Assembly: GCA_937124585.1 (NCBI GenBank)
Contig: CAKZKT010000124.1
Coordinates: forward strand, 10,001 to 53,117
From: an uncultured Anaerolineae bacterium
GTDB lineage: Bacteria; Chloroflexota; Anaerolineae; CG2-30-64-16
DNA length: 43,117 nt
Reading direction: 5' to 3'
Shown piece by piece: positions 1 through 10,478 of the stretch; the stretch's first letter is position 1; each line of letters opens with the position of its first letter. The notes beneath the pieces are model-generated. The model had not been told where the DNA came from. It was given only the letters and a program-made list of their open reading frames with translations, and searched no databases. A program made the translations under genes and the position numbers.

Positions 1-17
1 CGGCGCAACGAGAGCCG

Positions 18-46
18 AATTTATCACAGTCTCGTGAAGTTGTCAA
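18..46 (-). promoter_or_regulatory. Tandem promoter copy 1 (leftmost)
   Basis: Read on the minus strand this is TTGACA, 17 nt, TAAATT, a near-consensus sigma70 promoter. The -35 complement lies at 41-46 and the -10 complement at 18-23. It is followed by a GC-rich stretch and GTTGCGCC at the window edge. It is the third of three promoters with identical boxes and spacing, all pointing off the left end. The target is not in the window; a stable-RNA operon such as rRNA is the inference. Confidence 0.75.
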
Positions 47-136
47 ATTTGAGGGAGTCTGCTCTGCGGCACCCGATCACCGCCTTCGCATTTCTGGCCT
101 CCGACCGGTCGCCCGCCTCAGGCACAACGAGGGCCG

Positions 137-165
137 AATTTACCATATCTCGCCCACGCTGTCAA
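137..165 (-). promoter_or_regulatory. Tandem promoter copy 2
   Basis: On the minus strand: TTGACA (complement at 160-165), 17 nt, TAAATT (complement at 137-142). It lies 119 bp from copy 1. The bases after the -10 (CGGCCCTCGTTGTGCC) nearly match copy 1, while the 17-nt spacer does not. This suggests selection on the boxes and the initially transcribed region. Confidence 0.75.
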
Positions 166-272
166 ATCAAAGCCCCTGTGCTCTGTGAAACCCCGTTGAC
201 CCCTGCGGCCATTTGCACCGCCGGCCCATCCGTTCGACCGGCTCCCCCTTGTTCGGGGCGCAACGGTCGGCA

Positions 273-301
273 AATTTACCACAGGTGATCCGACCTGTCA
301 A
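273..301 (-). promoter_or_regulatory. Tandem promoter copy 3, directly after recR
   Basis: On the minus strand: TTGACA (complement at 296-301), 17 nt, TAAATT (complement at 273-278), followed by a CGTTGCGCC element shared with the other copies. The -35 box starts about 20 bp beyond the recR stop codon. I see no terminator between them, so dnaX-operon transcripts may read through. Apart from the three promoters, positions 1-321 hold no gene I can support. Confidence 0.75.
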
Positions 302-321: not shown

Positions 322-924
322 TCACATCGGCCGCCGCCCCTCCAGCGCTCGCGCCAGCGTCACCTCGTCCGTGTACTCGAGATCGCCGCCCACCGGCAGG
401 CCGCGCGCCAGCCGCGTTACGTTGACCCCGGTCAGCAGCAGCTGCTGGTGGATGTAGGCCGCGGTGTTCTCTCCCTCCAGGCTCGGATTGGTCGCCAAAA
501 TCACTTCGCGCGGGTGTGTCGTGCGCACGCGTTCGATCAGGTCGGCGATGCGCAGTTTCTCCGGATACACGCCGTCAATCGGCGAGAGCGCGCCGTGGAG
601 GACATGGTAGACCCCACGAAAGACGCCGGATCGCTCTACCGCCAGCACGTCGAGCGGCTCTTCGACCACACAGATGAGCCGCTGATCGCGATCCGGATCC
701 GCACAGATCGCACACGGACTGGTCTCCGCGATGTTGTGACAGCGCTCGCATTCGACCGTGCCCGCGCGCAGCGCGCGCAGGGCATCGGCCAGGGCAAGCG
801 CCAGCCCGTTCTCCTCGCGCAGTAGATAGAAGGTGAGACGAGAGGCCGTCTTCGGCCCGATGCCGGGCAAACGAGAGAAGGCCGCGATCAAGTCGCTGAC
901 CGGTTTCGCAAGGTTCTGCGCCAC
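322..924 (-). CDS. recR: Recombination protein RecR
   Basis: RecR acts with RecF/RecO to load RecA at gapped DNA in the cytoplasm. The 200-aa product has the family's usual length and order. A helix-hairpin-helix lies around residues 18-30 (RLPGIGPKTASRL), a four-cysteine zinc site follows at C59, C62, C71 and C74, and a Toprim domain starts near residue 82 (LICVVEEPLDVLAV). The start is GTG at 924, chosen because GGAGAG lies just upstream and the protein then begins as the family does. It is the last gene of the dnaX-ybaB-recR cluster, an arrangement conserved in many bacteria. Tandem promoters for something else begin about 20 bp after its stop. Confidence 0.95.
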   Translation of the reverse strand: MAQNLAKPVSDLIAAFSRLPGIGPKTASRLTFYLLREENGLALALADALRALRAGTVECERCHNIAETSPCAICADPDRDQRLICVVEEPLDVLAVERSGVFRGVYHVLHGALSPIDGVYPEKLRIADLIERVRTTHPREVILATNPSLEGENTAAYIHQQLLLTGVNVTRLARGLPVGGDLEYTDEVTLARALEGRRPM

Positions 925-978: not shown

Positions 979-1338
979 TCACGTCAGCCCGGGGATCTTC
1001 AGGCCGCTGGTCAGCGCGCCCATCCGCTCGGTGGCGAGGGCCTGCGAGCGCTCGACGGCCTCGTTGACCGCAGCCACGATCATGTCCTGCAACATCTCGA
1101 TATCATCGGGGTCAACCGCTTCGGGCGCAATCGTGATCGAAATCAGTTTCTGATGGCCGGTCATCACAGCCTTCACCATGCCGCCGCCGACCGTCACTTC
1201 GACCGTCTCTTCGCCCAGCTTTTCCTGCGCTCTGGCCATCTCGTCTTGAAGTTTCTGCAGCTGCGCCATCATGTTGCCGCCGCCACCCCCACCGGGCCGC
1301 GGCTGGCCGTACATCGGCCGGGGTTTGATCTTCGCCAT
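979..1338 (-). CDS. ybaB: YbaB/EbfC family nucleoid-associated protein
   Basis: A small DNA-binding protein of the YbaB/EbfC family, normally a dimer, encoded between dnaX and recR in many genomes. The 119-aa product has the usual family core (MAQLQKLQDEMARAQEKL, then EVTVGGGMVKAVMTG). A Gly-rich N-terminal stretch (PGGGGGGNM) precedes the first helix. It sits 22 bp after dnaX and 54 bp before recR on the same strand, consistent with one operon. The identification rests on both sequence and context. Its exact role in recombination or nucleoid structure is not settled for the family. Confidence 0.92.
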   Translation of the reverse strand: MAKIKPRPMYGQPRPGGGGGGNMMAQLQKLQDEMARAQEKLGEETVEVTVGGGMVKAVMTGHQKLISITIAPEAVDPDDIEMLQDMIVAAVNEAVERSQALATERMGALTSGLKIPGLT

Positions 1339-1360: not shown

Positions 1361-3007
1361 TCAGCCCAACCTGGTCACCACGGCGCCCAGGTTGCGGGCA
1401 TCGTTGAGAAAAAGCTCGTCGTCGCTCGGCGGCCTGGCCGCAGCCTGGCCAGAGGTCGCGCCGGTCGGCGCCAGCGCCTCGCCCAGCAGCGCGCAACGCA
1501 CCGGCGCCCGCGTTTTCAGCATCTCTTCCCAGAGCGCCTCGACCTGGCTGCGGTTTTCCGCCTGATTGACCAGATCGCGCGCAAACGCGTGGGAAAAGCG
1601 CAAGACAATCGTATCGCCGACGACGTCGAGCTCCTTGACCGAGCGCAACGCCGCCTGCACTTTCACGCCGCAGCGCTTGCCCGCCGCCGCCACGAAACGC
1701 TCCCAGTGCGCCTGGACGGCCTGGCGCAACCCGACTTCGCCCGGGCCGGCGGCCGGCTGATGCGGCGCTGCGGCCGGCGGCCCGCTCTGCGCAACGGCCG
1801 GGGCAGCGGCCGGCTGATGCGCCGGCCGTGCGACGCTCTTGTCGGCAGCAGGAGCCGCTGCAGCCACCGCGGCGGGCTGAACGACCGGCTCCGACCGGGC
1901 GCTTTGTGCATCTGCTGTGCCGGCCGCCGACCGCAGGAATGCCAGTTCGATGGGCAGCTGCGGCACGCCGGGAATCTGATCGCGCAGCGCGTTGCGCGCC
2001 TCGGTGAACTCCTGGAGCGCGTGGAGCAAGCCGGCCGGCGACCAACCGGCCGCCTGCCGGGCAACCGTTTGGGCCACGTCCTGGGGCAGATCGAGCAGTT
2101 CCGGCGCATGCGCCAGGCGCGCGAACAGGACCGCGCGCAGGTAGGCGATGATCTGATCCACCAGCTGGCCCAGCTCCACACCCTCGGCCACCAGACGGTT
2201 GAGCAGGGTCAGACCGCCGGCGGCATCGTTCCGGGCCAGGCAATCCACCAGCTGGCCGATGGCCTGGGCGTCCACCAGGCCCAGAACGCTTTCGACGCGC
2301 TGCAGGGTCAGAACCTCGTCGCCGTAGGAGAGGAGCTGGTCGAGCAGGCTCACGGCATCGCGCATGCTGCCCGTGGCGCGACGGGCGATCGCCGTCAGCG
2401 CCTCCGGTTCGGCCCGGCTGCCCTCTCGGGCCAGGATCTCCGCCAGGTGCGCCGCGATCTCCGCGGTCGGAATGCGCCGGAAATCGAAGCGCTGGCAGCG
2501 CGAGCGCACCGTCTCGGGCACCCGATCCGGTTCGGTCGTGGCCAGGACGAAGACCGCATGGGGCGGCGGCTCTTCGAGCGTCTTCAGCAAGGCGTTGAAG
2601 GCCTCCTTGGTCAGCATGTGCACTTCGTCAATGATGTAGACTTTAAAGCGCGCTTCGGTGGGACGAAAGCCGATCTTCTCGCGCAGATCGCGGATTTCGT
2701 CAATGCCGCGATTGGACGCCGCGTCTATCTCGATCAGGTCGAGCTGGCGGCCCTCGGTGATCGCCACACAGATGCGGCAGGCATTGCACGGCCGCGCGGC
2801 CGGATCTGCGGCCAGGCAGTTGATCGCTTTGGCCAGAATGCGCGCCATGCTGGTCTTGCCCGTGCCGCGCGGGCCGGTAAACAGGTAGGCATGCGATATG
2901 TGGCCATCACGCAGGGCATTGCGCAGGGTGAGCGCCACATGCTCCTGTCCCACGACCTCCTCGAATGTCTGGGAACGCCATTTTCGGTAGAGTGCCTGGG
3001 CTGTCAT
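1361..3007 (-). CDS. dnaX: DNA polymerase III gamma/tau subunit
   Basis: The clamp-loader ATPase of the replicative polymerase. The start at 3007 (MTAQALYRKWR) matches the conserved N-terminus and has GGAG five bases upstream. The 548-aa protein shows Walker A GPRGTGKT at residues 45-52, zinc-binding cysteines C64, C74, C77 and C80, Walker B DEVH near 127-130, and an SRC arginine finger near residue 169. An Ala/Pro-rich linker follows at about residues 360-430, then a C-terminal domain. I found no A-rich slippery heptamer of the kind used for programmed frameshifting, so a single product is likely. It heads the dnaX-ybaB-recR operon. A YYGATTTG repeat pair lies 15 bp before the start codon. 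Confidence 0.96.
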   Translation of the reverse strand: MTAQALYRKWRSQTFEEVVGQEHVALTLRNALRDGHISHAYLFTGPRGTGKTSMARILAKAINCLAADPAARPCNACRICVAITEGRQLDLIEIDAASNRGIDEIRDLREKIGFRPTEARFKVYIIDEVHMLTKEAFNALLKTLEEPPPHAVFVLATTEPDRVPETVRSRCQRFDFRRIPTAEIAAHLAEILAREGSRAEPEALTAIARRATGSMRDAVSLLDQLLSYGDEVLTLQRVESVLGLVDAQAIGQLVDCLARNDAAGGLTLLNRLVAEGVELGQLVDQIIAYLRAVLFARLAHAPELLDLPQDVAQTVARQAAGWSPAGLLHALQEFTEARNALRDQIPGVPQLPIELAFLRSAAGTADAQSARSEPVVQPAAVAAAAPAADKSVARPAHQPAAAPAVAQSGPPAAAPHQPAAGPGEVGLRQAVQAHWERFVAAAGKRCGVKVQAALRSVKELDVVGDTIVLRFSHAFARDLVNQAENRSQVEALWEEMLKTRAPVRCALLGEALAPTGATSGQAAARPPSDDELFLNDARNLGAVVTRLG

Positions 3008-3021
3008 GGGGGCTCCGAGCC

Positions 3022-3039
3022 GGCAAATCAACAAATCGG
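3022..3039 (-). repeat. Octamer repeat pair upstream of dnaX
   Basis: Read on the minus strand this is CCGATTTG followed directly by TTGATTTG and CC, ending 15 bp before the dnaX start codon. The same octamer family occurs three times at 37458-37481, just before rsmD, again in the sense direction of the gene. Function unknown. Confidence 0.5.
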
Positions 3040-3077
3040 CCAATGATGTTTTACGACGTCTAACGCTCGACTTTCGC

Positions 3078-6927: not shown

Positions 6928-7797
6928 ATGGAAAATCTCATTCCCCACTTCGTCGAATTGATTCGCCGCGCTGCGACCGATCTGCCGGCAGATGTCGAGG
7001 CGGCACTGCGTCGCGCCCATGATCAGGAGGAACCCGGCTCGGCCGGCCAGGGCGCGCTGGCCGTGATCCTCGAAAACGTGCGCATGTCGCGCGCCTCCTC
7101 GACGCCGATTTGTCAGGACACCGGCACGCCCATCTTCTACGTGTACTATCCGGCGGGCTGGTCTACCCTCGCCCTGAAGAAACAGATCCGCGAGGCGGTT
7201 GCCGAGGCGACGGCGAAAGCCTATCTGCGGCCGAATTCGGTGGAAACCCTCAGCGGCCGGAACACGGGCAACAACCTGGGCGACGATTTCCCCTACTTTC
7301 ACTTCGAGGAATGGGAAGAAGACTATCTGAAGGTAGATCTGATGCTCAAAGGCGGCGGCTGCGAGAACGTCGGCGCGCAATACAGCCTGCCCGACACGCG
7401 GCTAGACGCGGACCGTGACCTGGAGGGGGTGCGCCGCGCCGTGCTCGATGCCGTCCATCAGGCCCAGGGCTTGGGCTGCGCGCCGGCGGTCATCGGCGTG
7501 GCGGTGGGAGGCGATCGGGCATCGAGCTACATCAAGTCGAAAGAGCAATTCTACCGGCCGCTGGACGACATCAACCCGGATCCACGCCTTGCTGCGCTCG
7601 AAAAACGCCTGACCGAAGAAGCCAACATGCTCGGCATCGGCCCGATGGGCTTCGGCGGCAAGACGACGGTGCTCTCCGTCAAAATAGACTCGCTGGAACG
7701 CCTGCCGGCCAGCTATTTCGTCACCGCCTCGTACATGTGCTGGGCCGACCGGCGTCGTACACTGATCTATCGGGATGGCGCGGTGACGATCGAGTGA
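6928..7797 (+). CDS. Class I fumarate hydratase, alpha subunit
   Basis: The iron-sulfur half of a two-subunit fumarase (fumarate to malate, TCA cycle); tartrate dehydratase is the close alternative. The 289-aa protein has the three cysteines expected to hold the [4Fe-4S] cluster: C62 (PICQDTGTP), C145 (GGGCENVG) and C184 (GLGCAPAVIG). The ATG at 6928 follows CAGGAG at normal spacing. It lies 42 bp after the ANTAR regulator, and the beta subunit follows after 142 bp. In enterobacteria the two parts are fused as FumA. The cluster would be oxygen-sensitive, which may be relevant to the thiol-redox genes downstream. Confidence 0.93.
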   Translation: MENLIPHFVELIRRAATDLPADVEAALRRAHDQEEPGSAGQGALAVILENVRMSRASSTPICQDTGTPIFYVYYPAGWSTLALKKQIREAVAEATAKAYLRPNSVETLSGRNTGNNLGDDFPYFHFEEWEEDYLKVDLMLKGGGCENVGAQYSLPDTRLDADRDLEGVRRAVLDAVHQAQGLGCAPAVIGVAVGGDRASSYIKSKEQFYRPLDDINPDPRLAALEKRLTEEANMLGIGPMGFGGKTTVLSVKIDSLERLPASYFVTASYMCWADRRRTLIYRDGAVTIE

Positions 7798-7939
7798 GAC
7801 GTGATGCGTCCGCGGTCAGGCGTGAAACGCGATGCAGCAGCGCGCAAGTACGCGAATCTGTTCGCACATCCGCAATGATGCCTGACATCTGCCGTCCGGT
7901 ATATCACGTTTTACGCAACCCGTTCGACGGAGCAATCCC

Positions 7940-8572
7940 ATGCCCACATTCGACCTGCACGTTCCCATCAACGAAGCCGACATTCGGGCGCTGCACATCG
8001 GCGATCAGGTACGGCTATACGGCACCGTGATCACCGCGCGCGATGCGGCGCACAAATACATCATGGACACCTTCATCCATCCGCCGGCCATTCCCGAAAG
8101 CGAACGCGGCCTGTACGAGGAGCTGAAACGGCTGTGGCGCGGTGGGATAATCTACCATTGTGGCCCGGTGGTCAGCCGCGATGCCGAGGGGCGGTGGCAT
8201 TTCGTGGCGGCCGGCCCCACCACCAGCATCCGCGAGGAGCCCTACGAGGCCGATGTGATCGCCCATTTCGGGGTGCGCGGCGTGATCGGCAAGGGCGGCA
8301 TGGGGCCAAAGACGCTGGCCGCCTGTCAGCAACATGGAGCGGTCTACCTGCACGCCGTCGGCGGCGCGGCCACGCTCATCGCCAGCGCTGTCAAAGAAGT
8401 GCTGGCCGTCTTCAAAAAAGAGGAATTCGGCGTGCCCGAAGCATTCTGGGTCGTGCGCGTCGAAGCATTTCCTGCGGTCGTGACCATGGACGCCCACGGC
8501 CAGAGCCTGCACGAGACGATGCTCGCGGCCTCGGCGCAGCGGCTGGCAAAGTTGATCGGCCGCCATTCATAG
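7940..8572 (+). CDS. Class I fumarate hydratase, beta subunit
   Basis: The C-terminal half of the two-subunit class I hydro-lyase; 210 aa, normal for the family. Diagnostic segments are GDQVRLYGTVITARDAAH near the N-terminus, the substrate-loop region RDAEGRWHFVAAGPTTSIRE, and GVRGVIGKGGMGPKTL. The ATG at 7940 has GGAG six bases upstream. The 142-bp gap after the alpha subunit holds no further gene and no clear terminator, so the two are probably cotranscribed. Whether fumarate or tartrate is the substrate cannot be decided from sequence alone. Confidence 0.92.
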   Translation: MPTFDLHVPINEADIRALHIGDQVRLYGTVITARDAAHKYIMDTFIHPPAIPESERGLYEELKRLWRGGIIYHCGPVVSRDAEGRWHFVAAGPTTSIREEPYEADVIAHFGVRGVIGKGGMGPKTLAACQQHGAVYLHAVGGAATLIASAVKEVLAVFKKEEFGVPEAFWVVRVEAFPAVVTMDAHGQSLHETMLAASAQRLAKLIGRHS

Positions 8573-8580
8573 GGGCAGCG

Positions 8581-8625
8581 CCTCTGTGGCCGCCCCTTCC
8601 ATGCCCGCCTGGGCGGCTACAGAGG
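8581..8625. repeat. Long hairpin between convergent genes (REP-like or terminator)
   Basis: Arms CCTCTGTGGCCGCCC (8581-8595) and GGGCGGCTACAGAGG (8611-8625) pair over 15 positions with one G-T wobble around a 15-nt loop. There is no T-run on either strand. The position between convergent stop codons suits a bidirectional terminator, but the sequence also looks like a dispersed palindromic repeat. Confidence 0.6.
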
Positions 8626-8633
8626 GATCGTGC

Positions 8634-8825
8634 CTACAGCCCTGGCAGCCGATCGGGATCGCCGCAGTGACGGCGCTCGACTTCCTGCACGCGCTGGCGC
8701 AGACGCCGCGCAAAATCGAGCGCAGCGGCCGCATCCTCGTCCTGCACGATCATCTTCAGCTCCACGACCTCTTCCGGCGAGAGCGCAATGGCGATTTTCG
8801 GCGGCTTGATCAGATTCAGATTCAT
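8634..8825 (-). CDS. Small conserved-looking hypothetical protein (63 aa)
   Basis: A 63-aa acidic/basic mixed protein starting MNLNLIKPPKIAIALSPEE, with a predicted helix rich in charged residues (DAAAALDFARRLRQRVQEVE) and one cysteine near the end. The ATG at 8825 is chosen over upstream starts because AGAGG lies seven bases before it. It is convergent with the fumarase and divergent from the csoR-like gene, sharing a 140-bp intergenic region with it that contains the palindromic operator. I do not recognise a family. No membrane segment or secretion signal is visible. Coding status is supported by the ribosome-binding site and a plausible soluble composition. Confidence 0.6.
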   Translation of the reverse strand: MNLNLIKPPKIAIALSPEEVVELKMIVQDEDAAAALDFARRLRQRVQEVERRHCGDPDRLPGL

Positions 8826-8873
8826 CTCGCGCCTCTGATACTCCGGGCATCCCGACACCGACCGGCGCGCAAT

Positions 8874-8901
8874 TTGACGATGGCGTCGAGTGCGGTATAC
8901 T
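8874..8901 (+). promoter_or_regulatory. Promoter of the csoR-like operon
   Basis: TTGACG (8874-8879), 16 nt, TATACT (8896-8901). The -10 box is embedded in the left arm of the palindrome at 8896-8919, the standard arrangement for a repressor-controlled promoter. Confidence 0.65.
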
Positions 8902-8919
8902 ATACCCCAGTATAGTGTA
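8896..8919. promoter_or_regulatory. Palindromic operator, probably for the CsoR-like repressor
   Basis: ACTATAC (8899-8905) and GTATAGT (8910-8916) form a perfect inverted repeat around CCCA, extending to 10-bp arms with one mismatch. CsoR/RcnR/FrmR-family repressors usually bind AT-flanked palindromes with a C/G-rich centre. The site overlaps the -10 box of the operon that encodes such a repressor. Autoregulation is the inference. Confidence 0.65.
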
Positions 8920-8965
8920 GGGAGATGCGCCGTGTCAAATCGGCGCGCAAACGGAAAAGCCGAAA

Positions 8966-9235
8966 ATGCAAGCACGCTCGCCAGATGTCAAAAACGAGCT
9001 CACCGTTCGCCTGCGCCGGATCGAGGGCCAGGTGCGCGGGGTGTTGCGCATGGTCGAAGAGGATCGCGAGTGGCCGGAAATCCTGCAGCAGATGAACGCC
9101 GTCCGCGCCGCATTGCACCAGGCCAGCCTCGTGGCCGCGCGCGACTACGCCGGCCGTTGCCTGGAGGATGCCAGCCCCGAACAGCGCGAGGCCATCCTGG
9201 ACAATCTGATCGCGGCGTTGGGCAAGCTGGACTGA
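8966..9235 (+). CDS. CsoR/RcnR-family transcriptional repressor with unusual ligand set
   Basis: An 89-aa all-helical DNA-binding repressor of the DUF156 family, recognised by RLRRIEGQVRGVLRMVEED and the NAVRAAL helix. Numbering coincides with mycobacterial CsoR, in which C36, H61 and C65 bind Cu(I). Here these positions are W36, Y61 and C65, so only one ligand remains. A lone H51 is the nearest other candidate. Copper sensing by the classical site is therefore unlikely. A single-cysteine thiol or electrophile sensor, or another inducer, is inferred. The promoter and palindromic operator lie about 50-90 bp upstream. The SD for the next small gene overlaps its stop codon. Thioredoxin and an ECF sigma pair follow. 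Confidence 0.88.
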   Translation: MQARSPDVKNELTVRLRRIEGQVRGVLRMVEEDREWPEILQQMNAVRAALHQASLVAARDYAGRCLEDASPEQREAILDNLIAALGKLD

Positions 9236-9244
9236 GGGTACGCC

Positions 9245-9319
9245 ATGAGTCAGGCGGATCTATTGTTTGGCTTTCTGGTCATCTGGGGGCTGATCATGCT
9301 TTTCGGGCGAGGCAACTGA
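9245..9319 (+). CDS. 24-residue predicted membrane peptide
   Basis: A very short reading frame, MSQADLLFGFLVIWGLIMLF plus GRGN. It is almost entirely one hydrophobic helix with a charged/polar cap at each end. GAGG overlapping the csoR-like stop codon lies seven bases before the ATG, indicating translational coupling. It lies between the repressor and thioredoxin, all in the same direction. I do not recognise it. It could be a small membrane regulator or subunit, or a by-product. The good ribosome-binding site and the exact helix length support a real gene. Confidence 0.55.
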   Translation: MSQADLLFGFLVIWGLIMLFGRGN

Positions 9320-9403
9320 GCGGCGCAGAACACATGTCGGCCCCGTGCGGGTCGCACAAACGACGATGAGCCGGTCGAAGCCGGCGGAAAAGAGGAATAA
9401 CCG

Positions 9404-9787
9404 ATGGCATTGCTGAAAAACCTGTTCGGCGGGAAAAAAGACGCCGCCGAAGAAACGACCTCGGCGGTGGAACCACGCCACCTGACCGGCGAGGAATTCG
9501 ACGCGCTCCTGCGCGAGGCGACCGTGCCGGTCGTCGTGGACTTTTGGGCCGAATGGTGTGGGCCATGTCGCGCCATCGCGCCGGCGGTTGCAGCCCTGGC
9601 CACCGAATTCCAGGGGCGGGCGCTGGTCGGCAAACTGAACGCCGATGACTACCCGGAGATCCTGATGCGCTACGGCATCATGGGCATCCCCACCCTGATC
9701 TTCTTCAAAGGCGGAGAAGAAGTGGATCGCATCATCGGTTTCACCAGCTACGGTATGCTGAAAAGCAAACTCGAACGGCTCTTGTAA
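9404..9787 (+). CDS. Thioredoxin
   Basis: A 127-aa thioredoxin-fold disulfide reductase with active site WCGPC (C52, C55) after VVVDFWAE, and the cis-proline segment GIMGIPTLIFF. An extra N-terminal stretch of about 25 residues (MALLKNLFGGKKDAAEE) precedes the fold. It is basic/amphipathic and not a signal peptide, so the protein is probably cytoplasmic or loosely membrane-associated. The ATG at 9404 follows GAGGA. It lies between a cysteine-containing CsoR-like repressor and an ECF sigma/zinc anti-sigma pair, which suggests control by thiol-redox state. Confidence 0.94.
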   Translation: MALLKNLFGGKKDAAEETTSAVEPRHLTGEEFDALLREATVPVVVDFWAEWCGPCRAIAPAVAALATEFQGRALVGKLNADDYPEILMRYGIMGIPTLIFFKGGEEVDRIIGFTSYGMLKSKLERLL

Positions 9788-9836
9788 ACCGCCCGTGATC
9801 CTTCGTCTGTAACCCCGCAAGCGAACGGCGCATCCA

Positions 9837-10478
9837 ATGGAGCAAAAGCCCGGCGCACCCTATCCTACAGAGGCCGACCTGATCCGGGCGCTGCAAGCCC
9901 GCGATCAATCCGCCTATGCGGAGCTGGTGGAACGCTATTCGCCGACCATCTACAACCTCGCCCTGCGCATGATGAACGACCGCGAAGAGGCGGAAGAGGT
10001 CTTGCAGGAAACGTTCCTGAGCGCATTCCGGGCAGTACAGCGCTTCGAAGGCCGCAGCCAGCTGAGCACCTGGCTCTACCGCATCGCGTACAACGCGGCG
10101 CTGATGCGGCTGCGCAAGCGCCAGCTGCCCACCACGTCCATGGACGAACCGGCCCAGAACGAAGAGGGTGACATCATGCCCCGACAACTCGTGGACTGGA
10201 CGGGCCGGCCGGACGAGATGCTGCTCGCCAGCGAACTGCGGCGAGTGTTGGACGACGCTGTAGCCAGCCTGCCGGAGACATTGCGCAGCGTTTTCACCCT
10301 GCGCGACATCGAAGGGCTGTCCACGGCAGAAACCGCAGAGGTGCTGGGCCTCACCGAGACCAACGTCAAGGTGCGACTGCATCGGGCGCGGCTGGCGCTG
10401 CGCGAGCGACTCAGCAGCTACTTTGCTGCGGTAGATGCGGTCAGAGGGGCGCAGGCGGGGAGAGCCTATGTCGGTTGA
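9837..10478 (+). CDS. ECF sigma factor (RpoE-like)
   Basis: A 213-aa alternative sigma factor. Region 2 (YAELVERYSPTIYNLALRMM, then EEVLQETFLSAFRAV and STWLYRIAYNAALMRLRKR) and region 4 (LPETLRSVFTLRDIEGLS, then TETNVKVRLHRARLALRERL) are both complete. The ATG at 9837 has no strong ribosome-binding site, so translation may depend on thioredoxin upstream (49-bp gap). The next gene overlaps it by 11 bp, the usual sigma/anti-sigma arrangement. The promoter motif it recognises cannot be deduced here. Confidence 0.94.
   Translation: MEQKPGAPYPTEADLIRALQARDQSAYAELVERYSPTIYNLALRMMNDREEAEEVLQETFLSAFRAVQRFEGRSQLSTWLYRIAYNAALMRLRKRQLPTTSMDEPAQNEEGDIMPRQLVDWTGRPDEMLLASELRRVLDDAVASLPETLRSVFTLRDIEGLSTAETAEVLGLTETNVKVRLHRARLALRERLSSYFAAVDAVRGAQAGRAYVG

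What the first reader, a model, noticed from the sequence alone, without database searches (positions are those of the whole stretch)
18..301. Triple tandem promoter firing out of the left edge
Three copies of TTGACA-N17-TAAATT on the minus strand at 18-46, 137-165 and 273-301 have identical boxes and identical spacing. Flanking initial-transcript motifs are conserved (CGTTGYGCC), while the 17-nt spacers differ. Conservation of only the functional bases means selection rather than recent duplication. GC-rich bases after the -10 are typical of stringently controlled stable-RNA promoters. An rRNA or other stable-RNA operon to the left is the inference.
Basis: partly seen in the sequence, partly recalled or inferred. 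Interest (0 to 1): 0.7.

Follow-up and report, generated by a model that had tools for sequence, protein, structure and literature searches.

The report
Tandem promoters of an rRNA operon
Three near-identical promoters in a row drive what appears to be the only ribosomal RNA operon of an uncultured Chloroflexota bacterium; the arrangement is a known one, here with an unusually strict shared sequence at the presumed start of each transcript.

Summary
TTGACA-N17-TAAATT occurs three times at the stated places and nowhere else in the 4.83 Mb genome. The contig continues 10 kb to the left. On the same strand it holds 23S and 5S rRNA genes, separated from the promoters by a 2,500-base masked stretch where 16S should be. 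A genome of the same family has the complete order: recR, four promoters, a boxA-like element, 16S, tRNA-Ile, 23S, 5S. Across six genomes, 17 such promoters share RATTTGACA, a 17-base spacer ending in an extended -10, an 8-base GC-rich discriminator, and GTTGYGC from the ninth base after the -10. Discriminator and presumed start distance resemble E. coli rrnB P1. GTP start, stringent control and promoter activity itself are inferred, not measured. It is a new member of a known kind. The start-site motif, nearly confined to rRNA promoters, is the only unusual part.

The parts
273..301 (-). rRNA promoter, upstream copy: -35 TTGACA 301-296, 17-base spacer ending TGG, -10 TAAATT 278-273
257..272 (-). 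discriminator TGCCGACC (272-265) and presumed initial transcript GTTGCGCC (264-257); predicted +1 G at 264 (inferred)
137..165 (-). rRNA promoter, middle copy: -35 165-160, spacer ending TGG, -10 TAAATT 142-137
121..136 (-). discriminator CGGCCCTC (136-129) and presumed initial transcript GTTGTGCC (128-121); predicted +1 G at 128 (inferred)
18..46 (-). rRNA promoter, downstream visible copy: -35 46-41, spacer ending TGA, -10 TAAATT 23-18
2..17 (-). discriminator CGGCTCTC (17-10) and presumed initial transcript GTTGCGCC (9-2); predicted +1 G at 9 (inferred). The rRNA operon continues beyond the window: mask L002:10000-7501, 23S L002:7513-3890, 5S L002:3763-3647, all minus strand
322..924 (-). 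recR, the gene immediately upstream of the promoters on the same strand
   Evidence: ORF; Pfam RecR domains
979..1338 (-). ybaB/ebfC, upstream neighbour of recR
1361..3043 (-). dnaX, upstream neighbour of ybaB (start codon uncertain)

Best explanation
Shown: three copies of one promoter type lie between recR and an rRNA operon on the same strand, and orthologous arrays lead into 16S-tRNA-Ile-23S-5S in a relative. Inferred: the housekeeping sigma-A RNA polymerase recognises TTGACA, TG-N and TAAATT at each copy and starts with GTP at the conserved G nine bases after the -10, behind a GC-rich 8-base discriminator. This gives unstable, fast-escaping open complexes sensitive to (p)ppGpp or GTP level, as at E. 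coli rrnB P1. Several copies in series raise polymerase loading on what appears to be the only rRNA operon. A further, different promoter and a boxA-like antitermination element probably lie in the masked leader, as in relatives.
For: Promoters unique to this place in the genome. 23S and 5S downstream on the same strand, the only 23S found in the genome. Complete orthologous locus in G009/L109; partial 16S after the array in L007 and L010. 17 promoters of this class in six genomes, TTGACA exact in 16 of 17, always a 17-base spacer, GTTGYGC at a fixed offset. GC-rich discriminator against 54 other promoter-like sites, p = 1.7e-6 for the 17 copies. A GC-rich discriminator and a start nine bases after the -10 are described for rrnBP1 in PMC7822876.
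Against: 16S itself is masked in this genome. There are no 5'-end or activity data. The RecR-closest relative L006 has no such promoters and no rRNA after recR, so the linkage is not universal. No long A/T-rich UP element is evident.
Confidence: 0.93

Rival explanations
1. The promoters are as described, but the starts are at the usual seven bases after the -10 (window 266, 130 and 11), and GTTGYGCC is conserved for a later role, such as a 5' stem-loop that protects or paces the leader RNA.
For: A small hairpin can be drawn from GCGCC and the following bases in several copies; pooled shuffle test p = 0.004 over 16 related sequences.
Against: Only 4 of 16 copies are individually below p 0.05 and several have no better stem than shuffles. 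The sequences are related, so the pooled p value is optimistic. Starts on pyrimidines are usually disfavoured (general knowledge).
Confidence: 0.25
2. CGTTGYGCC is a binding site of a dedicated rRNA regulator overlapping the start site, and not part of initiation or of the transcript's function.
For: Conservation at a fixed offset and near restriction to rRNA promoters: 1 of 54 other promoter-like sites in this genome has GTTG at that offset.
Against: No dyad symmetry; a fixed offset fits a core promoter part equally well; no candidate protein was sought. Related starts occur before a SAM riboswitch in G009 and before another leader in a different family.
Confidence: 0.1
3. The copies are chance matches or a non-promoter repeat in an intergenic region.
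For: None beyond the absence of experimental data.
Against: Zero expected by shuffles and zero elsewhere in the genome; the same design at the same locus in other genera while spacers diverge.
Confidence: 0.01

Closest known systems
E. coli rrn P1 promoters (rrnB P1)
   Same: Upstream member of a tandem series before 16S; 8-base GC-rich discriminator; purine (here G) nine bases after the -10 (PMC7822876 for rrnBP1; here).
   Different: Perfect -35 with 17-base spacer and extended -10, with a weaker -10 TAAATT; no clear long UP element; three or more copies of the same promoter; conserved GTTGYGCC. From memory, rrnB P1 has a 16-base spacer and starts with A.
Bacillus subtilis rrn tandem promoters (P1/P2, GTP-sensing)
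   Same: Tandem promoters with a 17-base spacing and presumed G start; from memory, rrnA lies not far from recR in B. subtilis.
   Different: Discriminator and start offset here are more like rrnB P1; control by GTP not tested here.
Propionibacterium acnes and mycobacterial rrn operons with two promoters
   Same: More than one start site before 16S (PMC3848588; PMC10218544).
   Different: Different phylum; here three or more near-identical copies.

Membership tests
Bacterial rRNA operon promoter region | sigma-A-type promoters on the same strand upstream of rRNA genes | tested here: met
   Promoters at 18-301 minus strand; 23S and 5S on the minus strand to the left
Bacterial rRNA operon promoter region | 16S rRNA is the first gene downstream | tested here: inconclusive
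   Masked in this genome (L002:7501-10000); met in G009, L007/G006 and L010/G008
Bacterial rRNA operon promoter region | boxA-like antitermination element in the leader | tested here: inconclusive
   GGCACWTTAACAACTGAAGAGTGA found in five family genomes at this locus; not in the readable part of G000, where the leader is masked
rrnB P1-type stringently controlled promoter | GC-rich discriminator | tested here: met
   75-88% GC in the three copies; 46% in 54 background sites
rrnB P1-type stringently controlled promoter | transcription start nine bases after the -10 | not testable with these tools
   G at that position in all 17 copies is consistent, but the class was partly defined by GTT there; no 5'-end data
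rrnB P1-type stringently controlled promoter | A/T-rich UP element from -60 to -40 | tested here: not met
   Only a few A/T bases directly before the -35; the next ten bases upstream are mostly G/C in the 17 copies; bases further up were not profiled
rrnB P1-type stringently controlled promoter | repression by (p)ppGpp/DksA or falling GTP | not testable with these tools
   Needs experiment

The most novel reading that the evidence does not exclude
In this Chloroflexota family rRNA synthesis uses a dedicated initial-transcribed-sequence element, GTTGYGCC, placed exactly nine bases after the -10 of several duplicated promoters. It sets start choice, promoter escape or 5'-end structure and is kept by selection while spacers drift. 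Versions of it also sit at a few other transcripts.
Probability: 0.4. Interest if true: 0.45.

Novelty: new member of a known kind. Interest (0 to 1): 0.27.

Why it matters
It is a clean case of promoter multiplication in front of an apparently single rRNA operon, in a phylum for which the full-text searches here found no paper on rRNA promoters. It also offers a natural set of 17 promoters for asking how the discriminator and the first transcribed bases govern rRNA output outside Proteobacteria and Firmicutes.

Tried and rejected
Pairing of the start-site motif with 16S rRNA: CTCGTTGCG has one 9-base complement in 16S, but duplex energies of the leaders equal those of shuffled leaders, so rejected. 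Conserved 5' hairpin: pooled p = 0.004 but inconsistent between copies, left as weak. Motif as a general property of strong promoters in this genome: rejected, since only 1 of 54 extended -10 sites has GTTG at that offset. Family and order searches returned the same ten genomes, so breadth beyond the family rests on one class-level sample. Literature searches for rRNA promoters in Chloroflexi or Anaerolineae returned nothing; the library is partial.

Full report
What is there. Shuffles of the window give none. The whole genome, 4.83 Mb in 164 contigs, holds these three and no more, with none for the reversed control pattern. All three also carry an extended -10 (TGG, TGG, TGA before TAAATT), A/T bases before the -35, and CGTTGYGCC seven bases after the -10 hexamer. 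Pairwise, boxes and CGTTGYGCC are identical or nearly so, while the first 14 spacer bases match at only 3-5 of 14.

What lies to the left. The window is G000:C124:10001-53117, so 10 kb of the same contig lie beyond its left edge. That stretch (L002) has a 2,500-base mask at 7501-10000. Beyond the mask, all on the minus strand, are 23S rRNA (7513-3890) with a group I intron, and 5S rRNA (3763-3647). No other 23S was found in the genome. No 16S was found in the readable sequence, but that search also missed the partial 16S of G006, so it does not prove absence elsewhere. To the right of the promoters on the same strand are recR, ybaB and dnaX; the upstream promoter begins 20 bases after the recR stop.

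Relatives. RecR finds Anaerolineae/Chloroflexota MAGs as nearest relatives. In L007 and L010 recR is followed by three or four promoters and then 16S, cut by the contig end. In G009 the locus is complete: recR, four promoters (the last of another class), GGCACTTTAACAACTGAAGAGTGA (boxA-like), 16S, tRNA-Ile, a 23S about 0.8 kb longer than the Rfam model, 5S. The boxA-like sequence occurs once in each of five family genomes. The mask here would fit 16S plus a spacer as in G009 (2,010 nt from 16S start to 23S start), leaving roughly 500 nt of leader (my arithmetic). The linkage is not universal: L006, the closest by RecR (86%), has neither promoters nor rRNA after recR. More distant families have tRNA-Gln there instead.

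The promoter class. Among 26 promoter sites at this locus in seven genomes, 17 form one class, picked out by [CT]GTT at the fixed offset: RATTTGACA, N14, TGR, TAAANT, eight bases at 75% GC, then GTTGYGC. Because GTT was the criterion its invariance is by construction; the following G, the GC pair and the exact upstream string were not part of it and are still invariant. The promoter nearest 16S, where seen, lacks the motif; the nine unclassed sites have discriminators of about 42% GC. This recalls the E. coli division into a regulated upstream P1 and a steadier downstream P2 (general knowledge). In G000, 54 other sites of the form TTGACA-N14-TGN-TANNNT, against 0 in the control, show that this is the general strong promoter form of the organism. 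Their discriminators average 46% GC and only one has GTTG at that offset. The rRNA class is therefore set apart by TAAATT, the GC-rich discriminator and GTTGYGCC. In a sample of 396 genomes of the class, 30 have a match with up to one mismatch. One in another family (G144) has a promoter with GCGTTGCGG followed by a nearly identical boxA-like sequence.

How it probably works. E. coli rrnB P1 is described as having an A/T-rich UP element, a G+C-rich discriminator and a start nine bases after the -10 (PMC7822876). Here the discriminator is met, the ninth base is G in every copy, and a long UP element is not evident. I infer GTP-started, fast-escaping, starvation-sensitive initiation, and that promoter copies in series multiply loading on a single operon. 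None of this was measured.

Duplication and selection. In G005 two neighbouring units are 132/142 identical, i.e. recently duplicated, so arrays do grow by tandem duplication. In G000 only a faint similarity remains between the inter-promoter stretches.

Verdict. Observation confirmed, interpretation supported; a new member of a known kind, of modest interest. The open question worth testing is the role of GTTGYGCC.

Noticed in passing
L002:4868-5530 (minus strand, outside the window): Group I intron in the 23S rRNA gene with an ORF of 212 aa (L002:5532-4894) matching LAGLIDADG_1. The 23S of relative G009 is also about 0.8 kb longer than the model.
   Followed up: partly
L110 (G005:C406), 1868-2390: Recent tandem duplication of a promoter unit of about 147 bp, 132/142 identical: the promoter array is still turning over in this family.
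   Followed up: partly
L111:560-603 (G009:C215): Promoter of the same form with CCCGTTCCGCC at the presumed start, directly before a SAM riboswitch.
   Followed up: no
L112 (G000:C50:18170-18213, minus): TTGACA-N17-TAAAAT followed by CTCGTTATGGCCC and a possible hairpin, upstream of a membrane protein ORF beginning MYQMPLTAFETIAIYGVLVV; identity not checked.
   Followed up: no
L144, L145, L148 and others (family f38, genus g128): A conserved promoter followed by CACGTTGCGCCG (or a one-base variant) at the same offset in about ten genomes, with a long conserved leader and no Rfam match.
   Followed up: partly
L137 (minus strand; G201:C85:21441 downward): Promoter, then a CGTTGCGCCATAG...CTATGGCG hairpin and, about 200 nt on, a terminator-like GC hairpin with a T run: a possible small RNA without Rfam match.
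   Followed up: no
L011-L018, after recR: In other Anaerolineae families recR is followed by tRNA-Gln, with promoter-like TTGCCA/TTGAAT...TGNTAA sites just before it in several.
   Followed up: no
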